Source: Agrocybe praecox
Taxonomy: Eukaryota; Basidiomycota; Agaricomycetes; Agaricales; Agrocybaceae
Length of the DNA stretch: 64,000 nucleotides
Reading direction: 5' to 3'
Assembly: GCA_964017145.1 (NCBI GenBank)
Contig: OZ024849.1
Coordinates: forward strand, 3,162,001-3,226,000
The stretch's first letter is position 1, and each line of letters opens with the position of its first letter. The position numbers were made by a program, and so were the translations under genes. Below the pieces are notes generated by a model that was given only the letters and a program-made list of their open reading frames with translations, had not been told where the DNA came from and searched no databases. Positions 34,646 through 61,160 of this stretch are shown piece by piece.

Positions 34646-35467
34646 CTACTGCACCCATACGAGACGAACAGCGCGACAGACAAGGATGAGGTTTCCTACT
34701 AGAAGAGTAGTAATAGTGATGGAACCTATCAAACCGAATCCTGAAGTGCAGTTCCCCACATCGTTGACCAAGTCTCTGTCAATCCAGCTTATGATCAATA
34801 GCATCATCGCGCATAATATCACACCCCTATCATAACGATTAGAACTTCTCATTTGGAAGTGGATTTTTATTTCTCACCATAACACCAGTACGACAGGCAG
34901 CGCAAGGCATACCCAGAAATCAATGGAGGAAGATTTTTGCACGGCCCTCGAAGCCTATATATATGTTTATTATGCCGAGCTTATAATATGCAGGAGATAA
35001 AAATAAAATACCACCTACCAGCGTCCATGATTGCCGGAACTTTGCTTCACTCATCTTCTGTGTGGATACTAAAAATAGACCACCGACTGCCAAGCCTGTC
35101 AGCGAGAAAACACCGATGGCCATGGTTGAGGTACGCAAGAATACATTGCACAGAACCATGTTAATTTGTAGCAGAGCGACTGAGACTCTGCGTGTACGTG
35201 ACTGCGTAAGTATTAGGGTAAAGCACGGTGATATACCACGCACTGGAGCAAAACGACCGATGCACCACATGCACCCTTCCAGTGCACGTGCAAGGTCGCC
35301 AAAATGCTTGGCCATTTTTCGCTTCCCACTAATAGTTGCAGCATAGGGTCCTGGGAGTGCGCTCCTTGTATCGCTACGAACATGCCAAAGTGTGAATGAT
35401 AAACTGGGTATAGGAATAGAGTGTAGGCTTTCATTAAAGTTTGGAAGATTGAGACAGCGGTTTTCAT
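34646..35467 (-). CDS. Multi-pass membrane protein, family copy M1
   Basis: Minus-strand gene of four exons. Exon 1 starts at 35467 with MKTAVSIFQTLMKAYTLFLY and ends with HWKGACGASVVLLQ. Exon 2 carries two hydrophobic helices (VSVALLQINMVLCNVFLRTS; GVFSLTGLAVGGLFLVS) and KMSEAKFRQSWTL. Exon 3 encodes a helix ending in ALPVVLVLW in the paralogues. Exon 4 reads GVILCAMMLLIISWIDRDLV, GNCTSGFGLIGSITITTLLV and ILVCRAVRLVWVQ to the stop at 34646. Five hydrophobic segments suggest an integral membrane protein. I know no named family for it. At least four other copies lie in this window, always on the minus strand and always at the end of the repeat unit. Confidence 0.6.
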
Positions 35468-39400: not shown

Positions 39401-40079
39401 GCTATACATATCGTCACCTCTCCCCTCCTCTCCGACCAGTGCTTCACATTCCACCATCCTCACCCACTATCATCCTCGCTACATGATGCTTCGTACAGAT
39501 CCCATCCTTCGTTCCAAATAATTGTTTGCAAGGCTCTAGACGACGCCGCTTCGATGAAAATGCGCTCTGCAGAGGTTGGGGATTGAGATGACGTGTTGGC
39601 TGCCGCCATCTCTCTTCGAGGAAGGCTGTGGATCCTTGCAGAGGACGTTGGTGACGCTGCATGCGTCTATCTCCGCCGTCGTTTGTCGGTGGAGACGTTC
39701 CAAATCCGTTCCGAGGGCGTTCGGGATCCTGTTGGACGTTGCGTGCCTCTCTCCCGATCAAAGTTGTTCGTTGGCGGACGTTGTAGATGTCTGTAGGACG
39801 TGTTTTCTATGCGAAAACATTGGGAATCGAAAGGAGACGCCGAACGATCGTGTGGGACCTTGGCTGTGACATTGCTGGTCGCCGAAAGTTGTGGACATGT
39901 GTGGGACGTGCTCTCGATGTGAGTATGTCAGGAATCGAGAGTCAGACGCCAGACAATCGCGTGGGACGTTGACTTTGTCGTTGCTCGTCGGCGGAAGTTG
40001 TGGACGTATGTGGAACGTGCTCTCCATGTAGCGAATATGGATGTCTGCGTCTGTCGCACTCATTTTTTGCGTGGTTGTC

Positions 40080-40680: not shown

Positions 40681-41643
40681 CATTTTTGAACCCTTGTAAT
40701 AATTACATATATTGAATAAACCGAGTTTGACGCCAATTGCGTTTTGCCGAAGAGTCGAAATCAAGATCTCCCGAGTGTATTCTTCTGTTTCGAATATCGG
40801 GAGGAGGAGATATGGGTATAATGGTGGGGTAATTCATGAGTTGTGAGCTAGGTTTTTCTTTGATGACTCTGGTATTTCGCGGGAAGGTAATTGTAGTGTA
40901 CTCACATAGATATTATTTAATACACACTTGAGAGATACAGAATTGCCAAGGAGACTAAATGGAAACCACTCGCTGGCAGGAAACTAGCTGGGAAGGGGAT
41001 CGAGGCGAGGGTAGGGTAGGTTGGGTCATTGTGAATTGGACTCGAAGGATAGTCGGTGAGTCGGGGGGACATACATAAACATATAGGAGACATTTATAGC
41101 TATGTATTAAAGGTAAATTCACAGAAAATAGAAATGAAATGAAATATCTATTCGAGATACTAAGTTTAAGCGCCCGTCAAAAACATCGGTAGATAACAGA
41201 TTTCAAAATATTATCACAACCACAAAAGCTATCTAATCGTATATTTTGATACACTATACCCATTAATACATAACGGCACGGAAACAAGATAATCATGATA
41301 TGCTGCTGAAGAGGCAGGGTATTCCATACGAGGTGATTTCACTGTTTCTTGCCAACTACGTCCTCCTGGGGATCTTTCCCTCCGACCCTCGGCGGTTTCT
41401 TTCTCTATCATGGCAAGTTATACAACACCGTCGAGTGATGTCTTTGGCTCAGTCGGTGAGACAACTAGCCATCACTGATTGTCGAGTGGGAGGCTGCCGG
41501 TTCTAGCAGCCTCACTGAAGTTAGGCATTGATGAACGGGACAACATTGGGTTCTTGATTGCGATAGTCAGAAACTGTAGGTAAAATAGAATACATGTATG
41601 CGTGCGCACCTTGATTGCGGCGGTCAGAAACTGACCTGCAATC

Positions 41644-42371
41644 TAAGGTTGTCCGTTCGCCGAAAATAAAAAACTATATACTTTTACAATGTACTTACTA
41701 TGTAGTACCGATATTTCAATAAATTCATACATTACCTTTATTATCCAACATATAAATCCAATTATCCAACATACATGTAGGATTGTCCAACATATATATC
41801 AGGTTATCCAACACATGTACCGGATTATCCAACATATGTGTCGGGTTGTCCAACACACCACTTGGATTATCCAATAGATGTGTTGTATTATCCTTTATAC
41901 ACATTGGATCGTCCAATATATATGCTGTATTATCCAACATAGTTGAGAGTCATTCTCATACATCTAGTCGCTTCGAATGCCGGCGATGCCGGGAGTTCTT
42001 GATGGCCGTTGAGATCCGTTTGTAGGTGCCGAAGCATGGCAATCAGGAAAGGGCTCCAAATTGGCCGGCAAGGACGGCACCATAGCCGAGCGAGAGTAAG
42101 GTAATTGCCTCGAATTATGTTGGATAATCCAACATGCATGTTGGACAATCCAAATTATATGTTGGACAACCGAATCTATATGTTGGATAGCCCAAGTTTT
42201 GTGTTGGACAACCCAATATATATGTTAGACAATCCTACATGTATGTTGGATAATCGGACTTATATGTTGGATAATAAAGGTAGTGTATGAATTTATTGAA
42301 AAATCGGTACTACATAGTAAGTACATCGTAGAAGTATATAGTTTTTTATTTTCGGCGAACGGACAACCATA
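41644..42371. mobile_element. Foldback-like element, copy 1
   Basis: A 728-bp element is flanked by the 6-bp direct repeat gcaatc (41638-41643 and 42372-42377). The ends are taaggttgtccgttcgccga and, reversed, tatggttgtccgttcgccga, followed by long inverted similarity. Each arm contains about nine tandem units of roughly 21 bp built on the palindrome ttggataatccaa. The arms point in opposite directions around a ~150-bp spacer (about 41945-42105). Unit 3 keeps the empty site at about 49827-49837 (cctgcaatcaaggtg). No transposase is encoded. Confidence 0.9.
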
Positions 42372-42476
42372 GCAATCAAGGTGTTCTAAAATCTGTATAC
42401 TTGTGATCAGGTGATGAGAGAGGAAAAAGGAAAAAACATAGGAGTCGTAAAATTGGAATACATTGACGTTAATATT

Positions 42477-44090
42477 TTAAAGATCTTGATCAACCTCAAT
42501 GTCCTTGTGCACCCATACAACACGAGCAGCGCGACAGACAAGGATGGTGTTTCCTGCTAGAAGAGTAGTAATTGTCATGGAACCTATCAAACCGACCCCT
42601 GAAGTGCAGTTCCCCACATCGTTGACAAAGTCTTTGTCAATCCAGCTTATGATCAATAGCATCATCGCGCATAATATTACAGCCCTGTCATAGTGATTAG
42701 AACTTCTCATTTGCAAGTGGATTTTTATTTCTCACCATAACACCAGTGCGACAGGCAGCGCAATATGGTTGTCCGTTCGCCGAAAATAAAAAACTATATA
42801 CTTCTACGATATAATTAGTATTTAGTACCTATATTTTAATAAACTCATACATAACCTTCATTATCCACCATATAAGTCCGATTATCCAACATACATGTAG
42901 GATTCTCCAAGATATATGTCGGGTTATCCAACACATGTATTGGATTATCCAACATATGTGTCAGATTGTCTAATACACAACTTGGATTATCCAATACATG
43001 TGTTGCATTATCCATTATACACATTGGATTGTCCAGTGTATATGCTGCGTTATCCAACATAGTTGAGAGCCGTTCTCATACATATAGTCGCTTAAAATGC
43101 CGGCGATGCCGGGTTTTTTGATGGCCGTTAGAATCCGTTCATAGGGGCCGAAGCCTGGCCATCAGGAAATGGTTCAAAATTGGTCGGCAAGGACGGCATC
43201 ATAGCCGAGCGAGAGTAAGGTAGTTGCCTCGGATTATGTTGGATAATCCAACATGTATATTGGACAATCCAAATTATATGTTGGACAACCCAATCTATAT
43301 GTTGGATAGTCCAAGTTGTGTGTTGGACAATCTGACACATATGTTGGATAATCCGGCGCATATGTTGGATAAGCCGGGACATGTGTTAGATAATCGGACT
43401 TATATGTTGGATAATAAAGGTAATGTATAAATTTATTGAAATATCAGTACTACATACTAAGTACATCGTAAAAGTATATAGTTTTTATTTTCGGCGAACA
43501 GACAACCATAGCGCAAGGCACACCCAGAAATTGATGGAGGAAGGTTTTCGCACGGCCCTCGAAGCCTATATATATATGTTTATCATGGCTAGATTACAAT
43601 ATGCACGAGATAAAATAACACCTACCAGCGTCCATGATTGCAGGAACTCTGGTTCACTCATTTTATGTGCCGATCCTAAGAATAGACCACCGACTGCCAA
43701 GCCTGTCAGTGAGAAAACACCGATGGCCACGGCTGAGGTCTGCAAGAATACATTGCACAGAACCGTGTCGATTTGTAGCAGGGCGATTGAGACTCTGCGC
43801 GTACGTGCGTCGTGAATATGTAAGTATTAGGGTAAAGCACGACGATATACCACGCACTGGAGCAAGACCACCGATGCACCACATGCACCCTTCCAGTGTA
43901 CGTGCAGGATTTTGATGATGCTTGGCCATTGTAAGCCGCTGTTTTGGAATTGCACGAGTTGCGCCATAGGGTCGGACTCGTGCGCTCCTTCTGTCTTTAA
44001 ATTCGCGCGAAATTGTGAATGATAAACTGGGTATAGGAATAGGGTGTAGGCTGTCATTAAAGTTTGAAAGAATGAGACAGCAGTTTGCAT
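42477..44090 (-). pseudogene. Membrane protein family copy M2, broken by a foldback element
   Basis: Start at 44090 (MQTAVSFFQTLMTAYTLFLY), exon 1 and exon 2 (VSVALLQI-type helix, KMSEPEF-like segment before the intron) are recognisable between 44090 and 43620. Exon 3 is interrupted at 43510/42764 by foldback element copy 2, inside the codons for VCLAL. Exon 4 (42700-42477) is intact and ends in LVCRAARVVWVHKDIEVDQD L. The insertion adds 753 bp including its 6-bp duplication. I infer loss of function unless the element is spliced out. Confidence 0.75.
42764..43510. mobile_element. Foldback-like element, copy 2
   Basis: A 747-bp relative of copy 1 is flanked by the 6-bp direct repeat gcgcaa (42758-42763 and 43511-43516). 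Its ends are tatggttgtccgttcgccga and, reversed, tatggttgtctgttcgccga. It has the same inverted arms of ~21-bp palindromic units and a similar central spacer (about 43060-43225). Empty sites exist in copies M1, M3 and M4 of the host gene (gcagcgcaaggc). Confidence 0.92.
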
Positions 44091-48881: not shown

Positions 48882-49937
48882 CATTTTTGAACCCTTGTAA
48901 TAATTACATATATTGAATAAACCGAGTTTGACGCCAAACCCGTTTTGCCGAAGAGTCGAAATCAAGATCTCCCGAATGTATTCTTCTGTTTTAAATATCG
49001 GGAGGAGGTATGGTATAATGGTGGGGTAATTCATGAGTTGTGAGCTAGGTTTTTCTTTGATGGCTCTGGTATTTTGAGGGAAGGTAATTGTAGTGTACTC
49101 ACAGCTATTATTTAATACACACTTGAGAGCTACAGTAATGACAGGGAGACTAAATGGAAACCACTCGCTGGCAAGAAACTAGCTGGGAAGGGAATCGAGG
49201 CGAGGGTAGGGTAGGTTGGGTCATTGTGAATTGGACTCGAAGGATAGTCGGTGGGTTGGGGGGACATACATACACGTATAGGAGACACGTATAGCTATGT
49301 ATTAAAGGTATTTTCACAAAAAATAGAGAAGAAATGAAATATCTATTCGAGATACTAAGTTTAAGCGCCCGTCAAAAACATCGGTAGATAACAGATTTCA
49401 AAATATTATCACAACCACAAAAGCTATCTAATCGTATATTTTGATACACTATACCCGTTAATACATAACGGCACGGAAACAAGATAATCATGATATGCTG
49501 CTGAAGAGGCAGGGTATTCCATACGAGGTGATTTCACTATTTCTTGCCAACTACGTCCTCCTGGGATCTTTCCTTCCGAGCCTCGGCGGTTTCTTTCTCT
49601 ATCATGGCAAGTTATACAACACCGAGTGATATATTTGGCTCAGTCGGTGAGACAACTAGCCATCACTGATTGTCGAGTGGGAGGCTGCCGGTTCTGGCGG
49701 CCTCACTGAAGTCAGGCACAGATGGACGGGACAACATTGGGTTCTTGATTGCGGTAGTCAGAAACTGTAGGTAAAATAGAATACATGTATGCGTGCGCAC
49801 CGTGATTGCGGTAGTCAGAAATTGACCTGCAATCAAGGTGTTCTAAAATCTGTATACTTGTTATCAGGTTCGGATGAGAGAGAAAGAAAGGAAAAAACAT
49901 AGGGGTAGTAAAATTGGATTACATTGACGTTAATATT

Positions 49938-50791
49938 TTAAAGATCTCCATCAACCTCAATGTCCTTGTGCACCCATACGAGACGAGCAGCGCGACAGAC
50001 AAGGATGAAGTTTCCTCCTAGAAGAGTAGTAATTGTCATGGAACCTATCAAACCGAATCCTGAAGTGCAGTTCCCCACATCCTTGACAAAGTCTCTGTCA
50101 ATCCAGCTTATGCGAAATAGCATCATCGCAAATAATATCACAGCCCTGTCATAACCATTAGCACTTCTCATTTGCAAGTCCATTTTTATATCTCACCATA
50201 ACACCAATACGACAGGTAGCGCAAGGCACACCCAGAAGTCAATGGAGGTCGATTTTTGCACGGCCCTCGAAGCCTATATATATATGTTTATTATGCCGAG
50301 ATTACAATATGCAGGAGATAAAATACTACTTACCAGCGTCCATGCTTGCAGGAACTCTGCTTCACTCATCTTATGTGCCGATCCTAAGAGTAGACCACCG
50401 ACCACCAAGCCTGCCAGGGAGAAAACACAAATGGCTATGGCTGAGGTACGCAAGAATACATTGCACATAACTATGTCGATTTGTAGCAGTGCGACTGAGA
50501 CCCTGCGCTTACGTGAATATGTAAGTATTAGGGTACAGGACGGTGATATACCACGCACTGGAGCAAGACCACCGATGCACCACATGCACCCTTCCAGTGT
50601 ACGTGCAGGGTTTTGACGATGCTTGGCCATTGTAAGCCGCTGTTTTGGAATTGCACGAGTTGCGCCATAGGGTCGGACTCGTGCGCTCCTTCTGTCTGTA
50701 AATTCGCGCGAAATTGTGAATGATAAAGTGGGTATAGGAATAGGGTGTAGGCTGTCATCAAAGTTTGGAAGAATGAGACAGCAGTTTGCAT
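49938..50791 (-). CDS. Multi-pass membrane protein, family copy M3 (intact)
   Basis: The best preserved copy. Exon 1 (from 50791): MQTAVSFFQTLMTAYTLFLY to HWKGACGASVVLLQ. Exon 2: VSVALLQIDIVMCNVFLRTS, AIAICVFSLAGLVVGGLLLG, SAHKMSEAEFLQAWTL. Exon 3: ASRAVQKSTSIDFWVCLALP then VVLVLW. Exon 4: AVILFAMMLFRISWIDRDFV, KDVGNCTSGFGLIGSMTITT, LLGGNFILVCRAARLVWVHK, DIEVDGDL, stop at 49938. All introns have GT-AG ends and join in frame. Five or so hydrophobic segments predict an integral membrane protein of about 235 residues. Function unknown; the intact frame in an array of decayed copies suggests this copy, at least, has been kept or is young. Confidence 0.7.
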
Positions 50792-53362: not shown

Positions 53363-54539
53363 AGGAATCATAACAATTAACAGCGACGGACAATCGTGGA
53401 TCCGCCAGTCATCGTTCACCGAGGGCCCGACACGCAGCACTTCCCTTTTAGGCCAGAAACGTGACTTGTTTAGGGGAGGACTTCAATCTTTTTTTGGGAA
53501 AAACCGTGGGAGCCGCGCGCTACGGGAATTTAAACTCAGTTTCCCCGGCCTGTATATACAAGAAATGCTCTGCATGGGTCACCTGACCCTTCTTGTCGCT
53601 TCAGCGGTATACAGGCCAGGTTACCGGCCTACTCCCTTCGTTATCCCATATTCAGTCCCGACCCTGCGATCGATCCTCCGTAATCCTCGATATCTCAAGC
53701 TCAAGTTCCATGTCGTCGTTTGCAAGGCTCTGGCGCTTCGATGGAAGTGCCCGCTGCAGAGGTTGGGAATCTCCCGTCGTTTAAGGTCTCGTTCGCCGTC
53801 GATGTGTCAAGGACGTGGTTAGCACGTTGCGGACGTCGGGCGATCCATCGTGTGGAATGATCCGAATGCCTTGTCAGCAGTCGCTCGACCACGAGAGTCG
53901 TTATGAGCTGGGAAGAGCCTGGCAACCTCACGGACTCACCAGTGCTTCTCATCTCATCATCGTCACCCACTCATGTTATCAACTATCATCCTCGCTAGTA
54001 CCTCCTGCCTCCTACAATTCCCATCCCTCGTCCCAAATAATTGTTTCAAGGCTCTGGACGACGCTGCTTCGATGAAAATGTTCTCTGCAGAGGTTGGGGA
54101 TGACGATGACGTGTTGGCTGCGGTCATTTCCCTTCGAGGAAGGCTGTGGATCCGTGCAGAGGACGTTTGGGACGCTACATGCGTCTATCTCCGCCGTCGT
54201 TCGTCGGTGGAGACGTTGCACATCCTTTCCGGGGTCGTTCGGGATCCTGTGGTCCGTTGCGTGCCTCTCCTGATCATTGTTCGTTGGCGGACGTGTTCCC
54301 GATGTGGGTGCGTTGGGAACCGAAAGGCGGACGCTAAACGATCGTGTTGGACAATAGCTGCGTCAGTGGTCGTCGTCGGTCGTTGTGGACGTGTGTGGGA
54401 CGTGCTCTCGATGTGATCATGTAGGGAATCGAGAGTCAGACGCCAAACGATCGCGTGGGACGTTGACTTCGTCGTTGCTCGTTGGCGGAAGTTGTGGACG
54501 TCTGGGACGCTCTCGATGTTGCGAATATGGATATCTGCG

Positions 54540-56464: not shown

Positions 56465-57308
56465 TCAACCTTTGTGCACCCATACGAGACGAGCAGCACG
56501 ACAGACAAGGATGAGGTTTCCTGCTAGAAGAGTAGTAATAGTCACCGAACCTATCAATCCGACACCTGAAGTGCACTTCCCCACATCGTTGACAAAGTCT
56601 CTGTCAATCCAGCTTATGATCAATAGCGTCGTCGCGCATAATATCACAGCCCTGTCATAAGGATTAGAATTTCTCATTTGCGAGTGGATTTTTATTTCTC
56701 ACCATAACACCAGTGCGACAGGCAGCGCAAGGCACACCCAGAAATCGATGGAGGAAGGTTTTCGCACGTCCCTCGAAGCCTATATATATGTTTATCATGG
56801 CTAGATTACAATATGCACGAGATAAAATAACACCTACCAGCGTCCATGATTGCAGGAACTCTGCTTCACTCATCTTCTGTGCTGATCCTAAGAATAGACC
56901 ACCGACTGCCAAGCCTGTCAGCGAAAAAACACCGATGGCCACGGCTGAGGTACGCAAGAATACATTGCACAGAACCGTGTCGATTTGCAGCAGGGCGATT
57001 GAGACTCTGCGCGTACATGCGTCGTGAATATGTAAGTATTAGGGTAAAGCACGACGATATACCACGCACTGGAGCAAGACCACCGATGCACCACATGCAC
57101 CTTTCCAGTGTACGTGCAAGGTTTCGACCTTGCTTGGCCATTGTTTGCCGCTGTTGTGGAGTTGGGCGCGTTGGGCCATAGGGTCGGACTCGTCACGGTG
57201 CGCTCGTTCTGTCTCTAAAATCGCGCGAAATTGTGAATGATAAACTGGGTATAGGAATAGGGTGTAGGCTTTCATTAAAGTTTGGAAGAATGCGACATCA
57301 GTTTTCAT
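56465..57308 (-). CDS. Multi-pass membrane protein, family copy M4
   Basis: Exon 1 starts at 57308 (MKTDVAFFQTLMKAYTLFLY) and ends HWKGACGASVVLLQ. Exon 2 has VFLRTSAVAIGVFSLTGLAV, GGLFLGSAQKMSEAEFLQSW and TL. Exon 3 corresponds to the M3 segment ending in a helix, here with ACRTGVMV in another frame near 56700. Exon 4 reads AVILCATTLLIISWIDRDFV, GKCTSGVGLIGSVTITTLLA, ILVCRAARLVWVHKG, ending at 56465, a few residues shorter than M3. The splice joins look usable, so this copy may be intact. Between exon 1 and 2 the reading gtgaatatg ... cgcgtac carries a small insertion relative to M3, inside the intron. Confidence 0.55.
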
Positions 57309-59559: not shown

Positions 59560-61160
59560 TGCTTAAGACGTCTTATTAGCACTACATTCGTATTTTGCAG
59601 AATCTAGATACCATGTATTTCTATTTATCTCGATACATTTACTTTATTTCTCAATATTTCCAAAACTGGGCCATGAGGAGCCAACCAAAGGCTGGCAACA
59701 AGTGGCAGCAAAGAAAGCAAGTAAAAGTGTTACAAGTTTGGCAAGCAGCAGTGTTGCCTTTCGACTGTATCTTGAGAAGTTTTATTTTCACTTGGAAGTT
59801 GGAGTACAGTAAGGTAAAACAGGCGTATATGTCACTTTCATTAACAAAAGCTAAGTAACTTCCATAAAAAAAAGGTCAACCAATGACAGAAACTTCTTAC
59901 ATTCAATAAATATGAAATTTATCCATCCGTGTATCCATCCGCATTGAATGAATCCACGACCATTTGTTCATCCGTGTTTGATTATTTTACTGCTATTTGG
60001 CTAGCTTTTTATAGTCCGATTGAGTTCCACTTGGGGGCTTCGGAAAAAAACATTAAAAAAAACAAATGATCAACCATGGCCGGCCTGGCCCTTCATCACC
60101 CCAAGAGTGTTTGATATACAGAAGAATGTTTTATTACTGGAGAGGTGCAAATCAGAGTAGCCCTGTTGGCACCCGCCCGGTGGCTAGCTTCCAATCTATA
60201 TCAGAGGGGCAAATGCCGAAGTATGCGTCATTTACCCTATTCAATGTGACAGGCCGCGGTTCCGTCATGTGTTTTGGGAGATTGTAAATGAAAAATAATA
60301 ATGGAGGTTTGTATATATTATATTGTGCCCAGATAAATACATTTTTGCGCAGAGGAAAATTATACCTTTCATATGATATGCTTGCCAGGGTGATTGGTTT
60401 ATGAATGAGTAAAGGTCAGAATGGTGCTGAAATGTGTGTATACTCAAACACGATTTACTATTGTAAACTTGAATGATGATCATGGGTTGCCCACAATTCC
60501 CTCACATATTTTCAAAAAAGTTGCATATAATCAAGCTAAAATCATACATTATCATGAGAGTTATGTTGAGGATTTAATCTTGTGCGATATAGAGAGTTGG
60601 TAACATGACAAAGGGACAAAACAAACCTGAACTTACAAACCCAGAATTTGGCGCCGGGAATCACTGATTTTTGCTGAAAATCTTGGTCTGTCTTTTAGAT
60701 ATACTATGGATTTACATGTACAGAATAAAGATACAGAACTACTAAGACAAGGAGATCTGCAGCTAAAGATTCAGAAATACGGAGAAATGCGCGGGCAAAT
60801 GATGTGGGTACACCGTGCAACGCAGCGCAAGACGAGCGTCTTTGATGCGTCATGGAAGTATCCGAATTGTCCAAGCCGGCGGCTAGATGCCGCTTATTAA
60901 AGAATTTATCGATAAATATGCGTGAGCGGGATGGATAAATCAAAAGCGGGTCTATCCATGGAACGAGGATGGATTAATCCGAGAGAATTTATCCATCACA
61001 CGGGATGGACAAATCCACGTATATTTATCCATTGAACGGGATGGATAAATTCACGCAGATTTATCATTACTTGGTGTAAGGGCCATCGCGTGCGTGGCAT
61101 GTACGAGTCTTTCAAACTTTGTGATGGAATATTTACTTTCAATTTCAAGAAACATGCAAA
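59560..61160. repeat. Decayed repeat region with atttatccat words and a possible LTR primer site
   Basis: tttatccatccg words at 59915-59945 and a cluster of ggatggataaat in both orientations at 60925-61060 (including atttatcca ... tggataaat hairpins) flank this region. At about 60646-60668, ttggcgccgggaatcactga resembles the primer-binding site that follows the 5' LTR of some retrotransposons; a short ORF (60706-60900) starts after it. No integrase or reverse transcriptase is visible. Confidence 0.3.

What the first reader, a model, noticed from the sequence alone, without database searches (positions are those of the whole stretch)
41638..43516. Foldback-like elements with palindromic 21-bp arms and 6-bp target duplications
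Two related elements (728 and 747 bp) sit 0.4 kb apart. Each has inverted arms made of tandem ~21-bp units around the palindrome ttggataatccaa, a ~150-bp spacer and ends tatggttgtccgttcgcc. Each is flanked by a 6-bp direct repeat (gcaatc; gcgcaa), and each empty site is present in paralogous sequence in the same window, so ends are known to the base. I know of no described fungal family with this combination of foldback arms, palindromic minisatellite and 6-bp duplication. 6-7 bp duplications are reported for the Dada superfamily, but a link is speculative.
Basis: partly seen in the sequence, partly recalled or inferred. Interest (0 to 1): 0.85.

Follow-up and report, generated by a model that had tools for sequence, protein, structure and literature searches.

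The report
Non-autonomous IS3EU transposons with repeat-built arms
Two short jumping-DNA pieces in what looks like a mushroom-forming fungus appear to be passengers of a known transposon group (IS3EU), and the odd 21-base repeats in their arms also occur in enzyme-coding elements of that group, which suggests, without yet proving, that the repeats are landing pads for the transposition machinery.

Summary
All 13 complete copies found of this ~750-bp family carry an exact 6-bp duplication; of 40 related two-ended elements checked, 34 have 6 bp, 3 have 7 bp, 3 have none. They are best explained as non-autonomous members of the IS3EU superfamily. They share arm repeats and spacer with short elements whose outer 30 bp are identical, at both ends, to a 6.5-kb element encoding a DDE integrase-type transposase. 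Published fungal IS3EU have 6-bp duplications and TAYGG..CCRTA ends; ours end TATGG..CCATA. A related transposase core in this genome matches bacterial IS481 and IS3 models, below their curated cut-offs. The Dada guess is not supported. New, as far as I could search: subterminal arrays of 20-21-bp units with a TTGG-rich core occur in all three autonomous families examined here. I infer that they are multi-copy binding sites for the transposase, by analogy with Galileo; this is untested. A new variant of a known kind.

The parts
41638..41643 (.). left 6-bp target duplication of E1 (GCAATC)
41644..42371 (.). E1, non-autonomous IS3EU element, 728 bp (one 21-bp unit shorter than the usual 749 bp)
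41740..41941 (.). E1 left array of 21-bp units
41944..42110 (.). E1 spacer used as query; 23 matches genome-wide, 21 in complete elements read, one between two facing ends (L073), one beside an end (L074)
42116..42275 (.). E1 right array of 21-bp units
42372..42377 (.). right 6-bp target duplication of E1 (GCAATC)
42758..42763 (.). left 6-bp target duplication of E2 (GCGCAA)
42764..43510 (.). E2, non-autonomous IS3EU element, 747 bp; 99.5% identical (gaps ignored) to the copy L031 at G000:C2:711240-711987
42860..43061 (.). E2 left array of 21-bp units
43235..43415 (.). E2 right array of 21-bp units
43511..43516 (.). right 6-bp target duplication of E2 (GCGCAA)
49829..49834 (.). paralogous empty site of E1 (single GCAATC)
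56725..56730 (.). paralogous empty site of E2 (single GCGCAA); further empty copies at 34900-34905 and 50219-50224

Best explanation
E1 and E2 are non-autonomous DNA transposons of the IS3EU superfamily. A transposase made by full-length IS3EU elements elsewhere in the genome recognises their ends, cuts them out and joins them to staggered cuts 6 bp apart, so that repair leaves a 6-bp duplication. The arms are the subterminal repeat arrays of these IS3EU elements: tandem 21-bp units (about two DNA turns), each a near-palindrome, which I infer to be multiple binding sites, most likely for the helix-turn-helix region of the transposase itself, since one autonomous family (C) has arrays without detectable accessory genes. 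The foldback look follows from two such arrays facing each other across a short spacer once the genes are gone. Shown: ends, duplications, empty sites, shared arrays and spacer, and autonomous relatives with a conserved DDE triad. Inferred: superfamily name (by published features, not by a tree), cross-mobilisation of this exact subfamily, and the binding role of the arrays.
For: Duplications: 13 of 13 copies of the 750-bp family have exact 6 bp. Published fungal IS3EU: 6-bp duplication, TIR over 30 bp, ends TAYGG..CCRTA; IS3EU in general TA..TA and usually 6 bp. Autonomous relatives: L049 (6616 bp) and L050 (6459 bp), both with exact 6-bp duplications and 21-bp arrays, encode PF24764. Bridge: L058, L059 and L061 share 30 of 30 terminal bases with L050 at both ends and a 114-120-bp spacer core with E1/E2 at 79-86%. 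D254, D311 and E346 kept in 65/65, 66/66 and 66/66 residues of a 66-row alignment. IS481 model E 1.9e-10 and IS3 model E 2.1e-9 for the L070 frame. Arrays also in autonomous families B (L051) and C (L070); C shows no match to the two accessory genes. 498 of 541 adjacent motif spacings are exactly 21 bp (shuffled control 2.1 motif centres per kb). In 12 aligned copies every length change in the arms is 21 or 63 bp, except 4 and 17 bp close together in one copy (L043), which add up to 21.
Against: No autonomous element with the exact TATGGTTGTCCGTTCG end was found among the places; the nearest autonomous relatives differ at 3 of the first 16 bases, so this subfamily's own helper may be absent or extinct here. 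Within-unit compensation is not seen consistently: complementarity of symmetric positions is below the shuffled expectation at 5 of 10 positions and above it at 5 of 10 (positions 7 and 9 by 2.5-2.8 sd). Families B and C have periods of 20-21 bp with indels, so strict 21-bp phasing is not universal. L060 and both family C members examined give 7-bp duplications; L055, L058 and L073 have none, and L058 is one of the bridge elements. IS3 and IS481 matches lie far below the curated cut-offs (37.1 of 160 and 40.7 of 224 bits). The alpha-kinase gene of rust TET+ IS3EU was not seen in the L050 frames tested.
Confidence: 0.92

Rival explanations
1. The arms are a passive minisatellite: tandem duplication of units by slippage or unequal exchange, carried along without any role in transposition.
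For: Arms change length in whole units between copies; no consistent compensatory changes within units; such arrays are prone to slippage (established knowledge).
Against: Arrays at the same subterminal place in three autonomous families whose unit sequences differ but keep a TTGG-rich core (A TTGGATWATCCAA, B TTGGTGGATAAT, C TTGGTAGACAAT); all 27 rows of a genome-wide unit search lie within about 300 bp of a listed element end by my reading of the lists (the list was cut at 100 of 132 places). The B and C logos (20 and 38 sites) are biased by anchoring on the core.
Confidence: 0.3
2. The elements are Foldback/Mutator-type transposons, or Dada elements.
Against: Tetris has 8-10 bp duplications; the autonomous relatives encode PF24764 integrase-type transposases with IS481/IS3 similarity.
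Confidence: 0.03
3. The palindromic arms act as long hairpins (cruciform DNA or hairpin RNA feeding small-RNA silencing) rather than as protein sites.
For: Very stable predicted fold of E1 as DNA, z -32.7; symmetric positions 7 and 9 of the unit are complementary more often than shuffled.
Against: E1 arms are 86% and E2 arms 76% complementary, lower than the identity between near copies (E2 to L031 99.5%), so the two arms of an element are not being kept alike; compensation is absent at the inner core positions 1-6.
Confidence: 0.12

Closest known systems
IS3EU superfamily (Repbase; fungal families in PMC12730594, abstract and passages seen)
   Same: 6-bp duplication, TA..TA and specifically TAYGG..CCRTA ends, inverted repeats over 30 bp, DDE transposase related to IS3/IS481
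   Different: the passages seen mention no subterminal repeat arrays or foldback-like derivatives; rust TET+ families carry TET/JBP and alpha-kinase genes, not detected by Pfam in the seven L050 frames tested
Styx of Zymoseptoria (PMC10853768, passages seen)
   Same: fungal IS3EU-like element, 6-bp duplications, extra genes beside the transposase
   Different: described with a 36-bp TIR; arrays are not mentioned in the passages seen
Galileo (P superfamily; PMC3688188, abstract and passages seen)
   Same: foldback-like long arms with internal tandem repeats; transposase DNA-binding domain protects positions 63-80 and binds two further sites in the repeats
   Different: THAP-domain P-type transposase; four long direct repeats, not 21-bp palindromic units
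Foldback-type Tetris (PMC4079207, abstract and passages seen)
   Same: non-autonomous, tandem repeats inside inverted arms
   Different: 8-10 bp duplications, 220-bp repeats, autonomous partner unknown
Satellite DNAs with similarity to IS3EU in oyster (PMC8268682) and beetle (PMC5844308), passages seen
   Same: tandem repeats linked to IS3EU sequences are already in print
   Different: oyster monomers of 690 and 129 bp; a beetle repeat with about half its length similar to IS3EU-1_TC; not described as arm arrays in the passages seen

Membership tests
IS3EU | 6-bp target duplication (usual) | tested here: met
   13 of 13 copies of the 750-bp family; of 40 two-ended elements of the wider group 34 at 6 bp, 3 at 7 bp, 3 without
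IS3EU | TA..TA termini; in rust families TAYGG..CCRTA | tested here: met
   TATGG..CCATA at both ends of 12 of 13 copies; E1's left end is TAAGG. Families B and C of the same genome end TATGAG, that is TA..TA but not TAYGG
IS3EU | inverted repeats longer than 30 bp | tested here: met
   E1 arms 251 nt at 86%, E2 252 nt at 76%
IS3EU | DDD/E transposase related to IS3/IS481, on autonomous members | tested here: met
   PF24764 4e-41, 6.7e-57; IS481 1.9e-10 and IS3 2.1e-9, both below the curated cut-offs; triad kept in all aligned residues. Met on relatives; E1/E2 carry no transposase match (window in the database)
IS3EU | no HHCC motif upstream of the core | not tested
   stated for IS3EU in PMC10045372; not examined here
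IS3EU | transposase clusters with Repbase IS3EU/GingerRoot in a tree | not testable with these tools
   no Repbase sequences on hand
Dada | 6-7 bp duplication | tested here: met
Dada | Dada-type transposase | tested here: inconclusive
   the autonomous relatives examined have PF24764 instead; no Dada sequence was available
Foldback (Mutator/MULE type) | 8-10 bp duplication | tested here: not met
   6 bp in 13 of 13; 8-10 bp stated for Tetris
Foldback (structural sense) | long inverted arms containing tandem repeats, little or no coding capacity | tested here: met
   no ORF of 150 aa or more starts or ends within E1 or E2

The most novel reading that the evidence does not exclude
IS3EU transposons carry, as a conserved working part, a subterminal array of 20-21-bp dyad sites laid out at about two helical turns, on which the transposase builds an extended complex; the array's unit sequence evolves with the transposase and sets which non-autonomous foldback derivatives it can move.
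Probability: 0.45. Interest if true: 0.6.

Novelty: new variant of a known kind. Interest (0 to 1): 0.45.

Why it matters
It assigns a puzzling foldback-like element to a poorly studied superfamily with candidate helper elements in the same genome, and it points to a candidate end-recognition module (subterminal dyad arrays) in eukaryotic relatives of IS3/IS481. Three diverged autonomous families with three array variants in one genome make a natural test of whether arrays and transposases evolve together. Copies at 98.5-99.5% identity point to recent movement.

Tried and rejected
Rejected: L033 (2.3 kb, exact ends) as the autonomous partner; its extra DNA holds a Tc1/mariner-like frame (DDE_3). 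Rejected: L069 (8 kb, exact 6-bp duplication) as partner; no transposase match at a useful E-value, an internal frame with a weak, below-cut-off GCM hit (E 0.00035) that I read as a nested Mutator-type insert from recall. Rejected: C6:34099-38378 as a relative; its ends show no array and the inverted repeat runs on outside the ends. Led nowhere: the PDB sequence search with the L070 frame (0 matches); homologs of a second-gene piece of L050 (none of 8 candidates); a basidiomycete foldback literature search (0 papers). Tested without support: compensatory change within units. Rows dropped before counts: the spacing table used 32 of 36 elements held (L033, L037b, L051 and L069 left out) and neighbours 70 bp or more apart were not counted; the alignment used 12 of 13 copies (L033 left out); the triad alignment used 65 of the 120 listed homologs. 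The two single-ended copies (L038, L039) and L074 were not counted as two-ended. Of the TATGAGTG group (98 end matches) only L051, L037b, L070, L071 and L072 were read, and not all other end pairs were checked. The 27-of-27 statement rests on comparing lists by eye. An earlier count said 23 of 23 spacer copies before two of them had been checked; one search then found two facing ends round one (L073) and one end beside the other (L074).

Full report
What is there. The window is G000:C10:3162001-3226000 of a 59.17-Mb genome in 347 contigs. E1 (41644-42371, 728 bp) and E2 (42764-43510, 747 bp) are as described: ends TATGGTTGTCCGTTCGCC (E1's left end reads TAAGG), arms of 21-bp units, a central spacer of about 170 bp, and exact 6-bp direct repeats GCAATC and GCGCAA. 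Flanks joined over one copy of the duplication align straight through the junction with paralogous sequence: E1 at 49635-50032 (93.2%), E2 at 56531-56921 (94.4%), 34706-35102 (89.7%) and 50025-50417 (89.6%). The ends are therefore known to the base, and neither the ends nor the fold is what chance would give.

Genome census. The end 21-mer with up to two mismatches gives 37 places against none for the reversed control. Thirteen complete copies belong to the finding's own family; all 13 have an exact 6-bp duplication. Adding related subfamilies, 40 two-ended elements were checked: 34 have 6 bp, 3 have 7 bp (L060, L070, L071), 3 have none (L055, L058, L073). The set is not all pairs in the genome: of the TATGAGTG group (98 end matches) only five elements were read. 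After orientation by the spacer, E2 is 99.5% identical to a copy on contig 2 (L031), and E1 98.6% to L032 (gaps ignored), so movement is recent.

Autonomous relatives. Two elements with the related end TATGGCTGTCCATCCG, L049 (6616 bp) and L050 (6459 bp), have exact 6-bp duplications (CATATG, TTGCAG) and arrays of the same 21-bp unit. Their minus strand encodes a transposase in pieces that I read as exons; two open frames of L050 hit PF24764 at 2e-15 and 4e-41. The spliced 653-residue protein has 520 relatives at E 0.001 or better among 6926 candidates; most of the 120 listed that name an organism come from Agaricomycetes, others from Rhizophagus, a willow record, sponge, coral and tardigrade. 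Aligned with 65 of these, D254, D311 and E346 are kept in 65/65, 66/66 and 66/66 residues, with 34 residues between the last two. A second family, B, is L051 (7569 bp, ends TATGAGTGCCGGATCG, duplication CTGGTA). It has the same three genes: transposase pieces at 48-77% identity, second protein 43%, plus-strand protein 51%; its integrase domain occurs at three places with close scores (142.1, 142.1 and 141.2 bits). A third, C, is L070 (4157 bp, 7-bp duplication). It has the core in one 361-residue frame and no match to the two accessory genes, with PF24764 at 6.7e-57 and helix-turn-helix hits, mostly below cut-off, N-terminal to the core, and matches to the IS481 (1.9e-10) and IS3 (2.1e-9) models, well below their curated cut-offs.

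The bridge to E1 and E2. No autonomous element with the exact GGTTGTCCGTTCG end was found among the places, and the transposase pieces do not match L031-L048 or the window. But the spacer of E1 has 23 matches in the genome: 21 in complete elements that I read, one between two facing TATGGCTG ends (L073) and one beside a degraded end (L074). Among them L058, L059 and L061 have outer 30 bases identical to L050 at both ends. One non-autonomous lineage thus runs from the ends of the autonomous L050 to those of the finding. L058 itself has no duplication; L059 and L061 have exact 6 bp.

What the arms are. The unit consensus in the finding's family is TATGTTGGATTATCCAACATA, palindromic but for its central base (224 units of 12 copies). 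Across five groups, 498 of 541 adjacent spacings under 70 bp are exactly 21 bp. In the 12-copy alignment, length changes in the arms are 21 or 63 bp, plus 4 and 17 bp close together in one copy (L043, 84 bp lost in all); outside the arms there are four changes of 1 bp. These copies are related, so the counts are not independent. A genome-wide search for the unit gave 27 rows, which all fall within about 300 bp of a listed element end when compared by eye. Families B and C have arrays at the same place with other units (cores TTGGTGGATAAT and TTGGTAGACAAT, period 20-21). Self-match at the best period is 0.42-0.85 in the arms and 0.31-0.38 in the middles of the 11 elements tested. The simplest reading is a multi-site binding platform. 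Against a role for dyad symmetry as such: symmetric positions of 300 distinct units are complementary less often than shuffled at 5 of 10 positions and more often at 5 of 10, the excess being clear only at outer positions 7 and 9.

How it most likely works. Shown: DDE integrase-type transposase in relatives, 6-bp duplications, precise ends, shared arrays. Inferred from established biology of DDE transposons: end binding, pairing of ends, cleavage, and strand transfer with a 6-bp stagger. Inferred by analogy: arrays as secondary binding sites, as measured for Galileo, where the THAP domain protects positions 63-80 and binds sites in the arm repeats (PMC3688188, abstract and passages). In the present elements the array starts about 95 bp from the end. 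That family C keeps arrays without detectable accessory genes favours the transposase as the binder.

Comparison with the known. IS3EU is stated to have TA..TA termini and usually 6-bp duplications (PMC10045372, passages and section 3.3). Fungal IS3EU of rusts are stated to have 6-bp duplications, inverted repeats over 30 bp and ends TAYGG..CCRTA (PMC12730594, abstract and passages). Membership of E1/E2 rests on these and on the linked autonomous elements; a tree with Repbase proteins could not be made. No paper in the library holds both IS3EU and subterminal; one holds IS3EU and foldback, an oyster satellite-DNA survey where foldback appears only in a reference title. That survey and a beetle paper do report satellite repeats with similarity to IS3EU, with monomers of 129 bp and more. 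Repbase Reports and most subscription journals were not searchable, so novelty of the arrays is provisional.

Verdict. Confirmed observation; a known superfamily; a new structural variant with a testable end-recognition hypothesis.

Noticed in passing
L033:1998-4343 (G000:C7:202831-205176): A copy of the 750-bp family carries a nested Tc1/mariner-like frame (DDE_3 and Tc3-type HTH hits).
   Followed up: partly
L069 (G000:C199:6320-14415): A short IS3EU element swollen to 7996 bp by an internal insert with several long frames, one with a weak GCM-motif hit; likely a nested Mutator-type transposon (recall).
   Followed up: partly
L070, L071, L060: Exact 7-bp instead of 6-bp duplications; both examined members of family C show 7 bp.
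   Followed up: partly
G000, pattern TATGAGTGYCSGWTYGTA: 98 end matches of a second IS3EU group, many paired about 1.1-1.7 kb apart: probably a larger population of non-autonomous elements than the finding's own family; one pair (C2:4540415-4546884) is 6.5 kb long and was not read.
   Followed up: partly
L050:1330-2258 (-) and L050:4937-5662 (+): Two accessory proteins conserved between IS3EU families A and B but not detected in C; a piece of the first found no homologs, the second found four metagenome proteins; no Pfam match.
   Followed up: partly
window 34706-57038: Duplicated sequence, probably a tandem gene cluster, is the target of both insertions; the E2 site falls inside an open minus-strand frame of a paralog (56667-57038, no Pfam match), so E2 may interrupt a coding exon.
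   Followed up: partly
window 60927-61065: An unrelated 36-bp tandem repeat whose units contain inverted GGATAAATCC/TTTATCC-like stretches; possibly another repeat-armed element.
   Followed up: no
window 39823-40029 and 54315-54519: Related 109-bp tandem repeats in two places.
   Followed up: no
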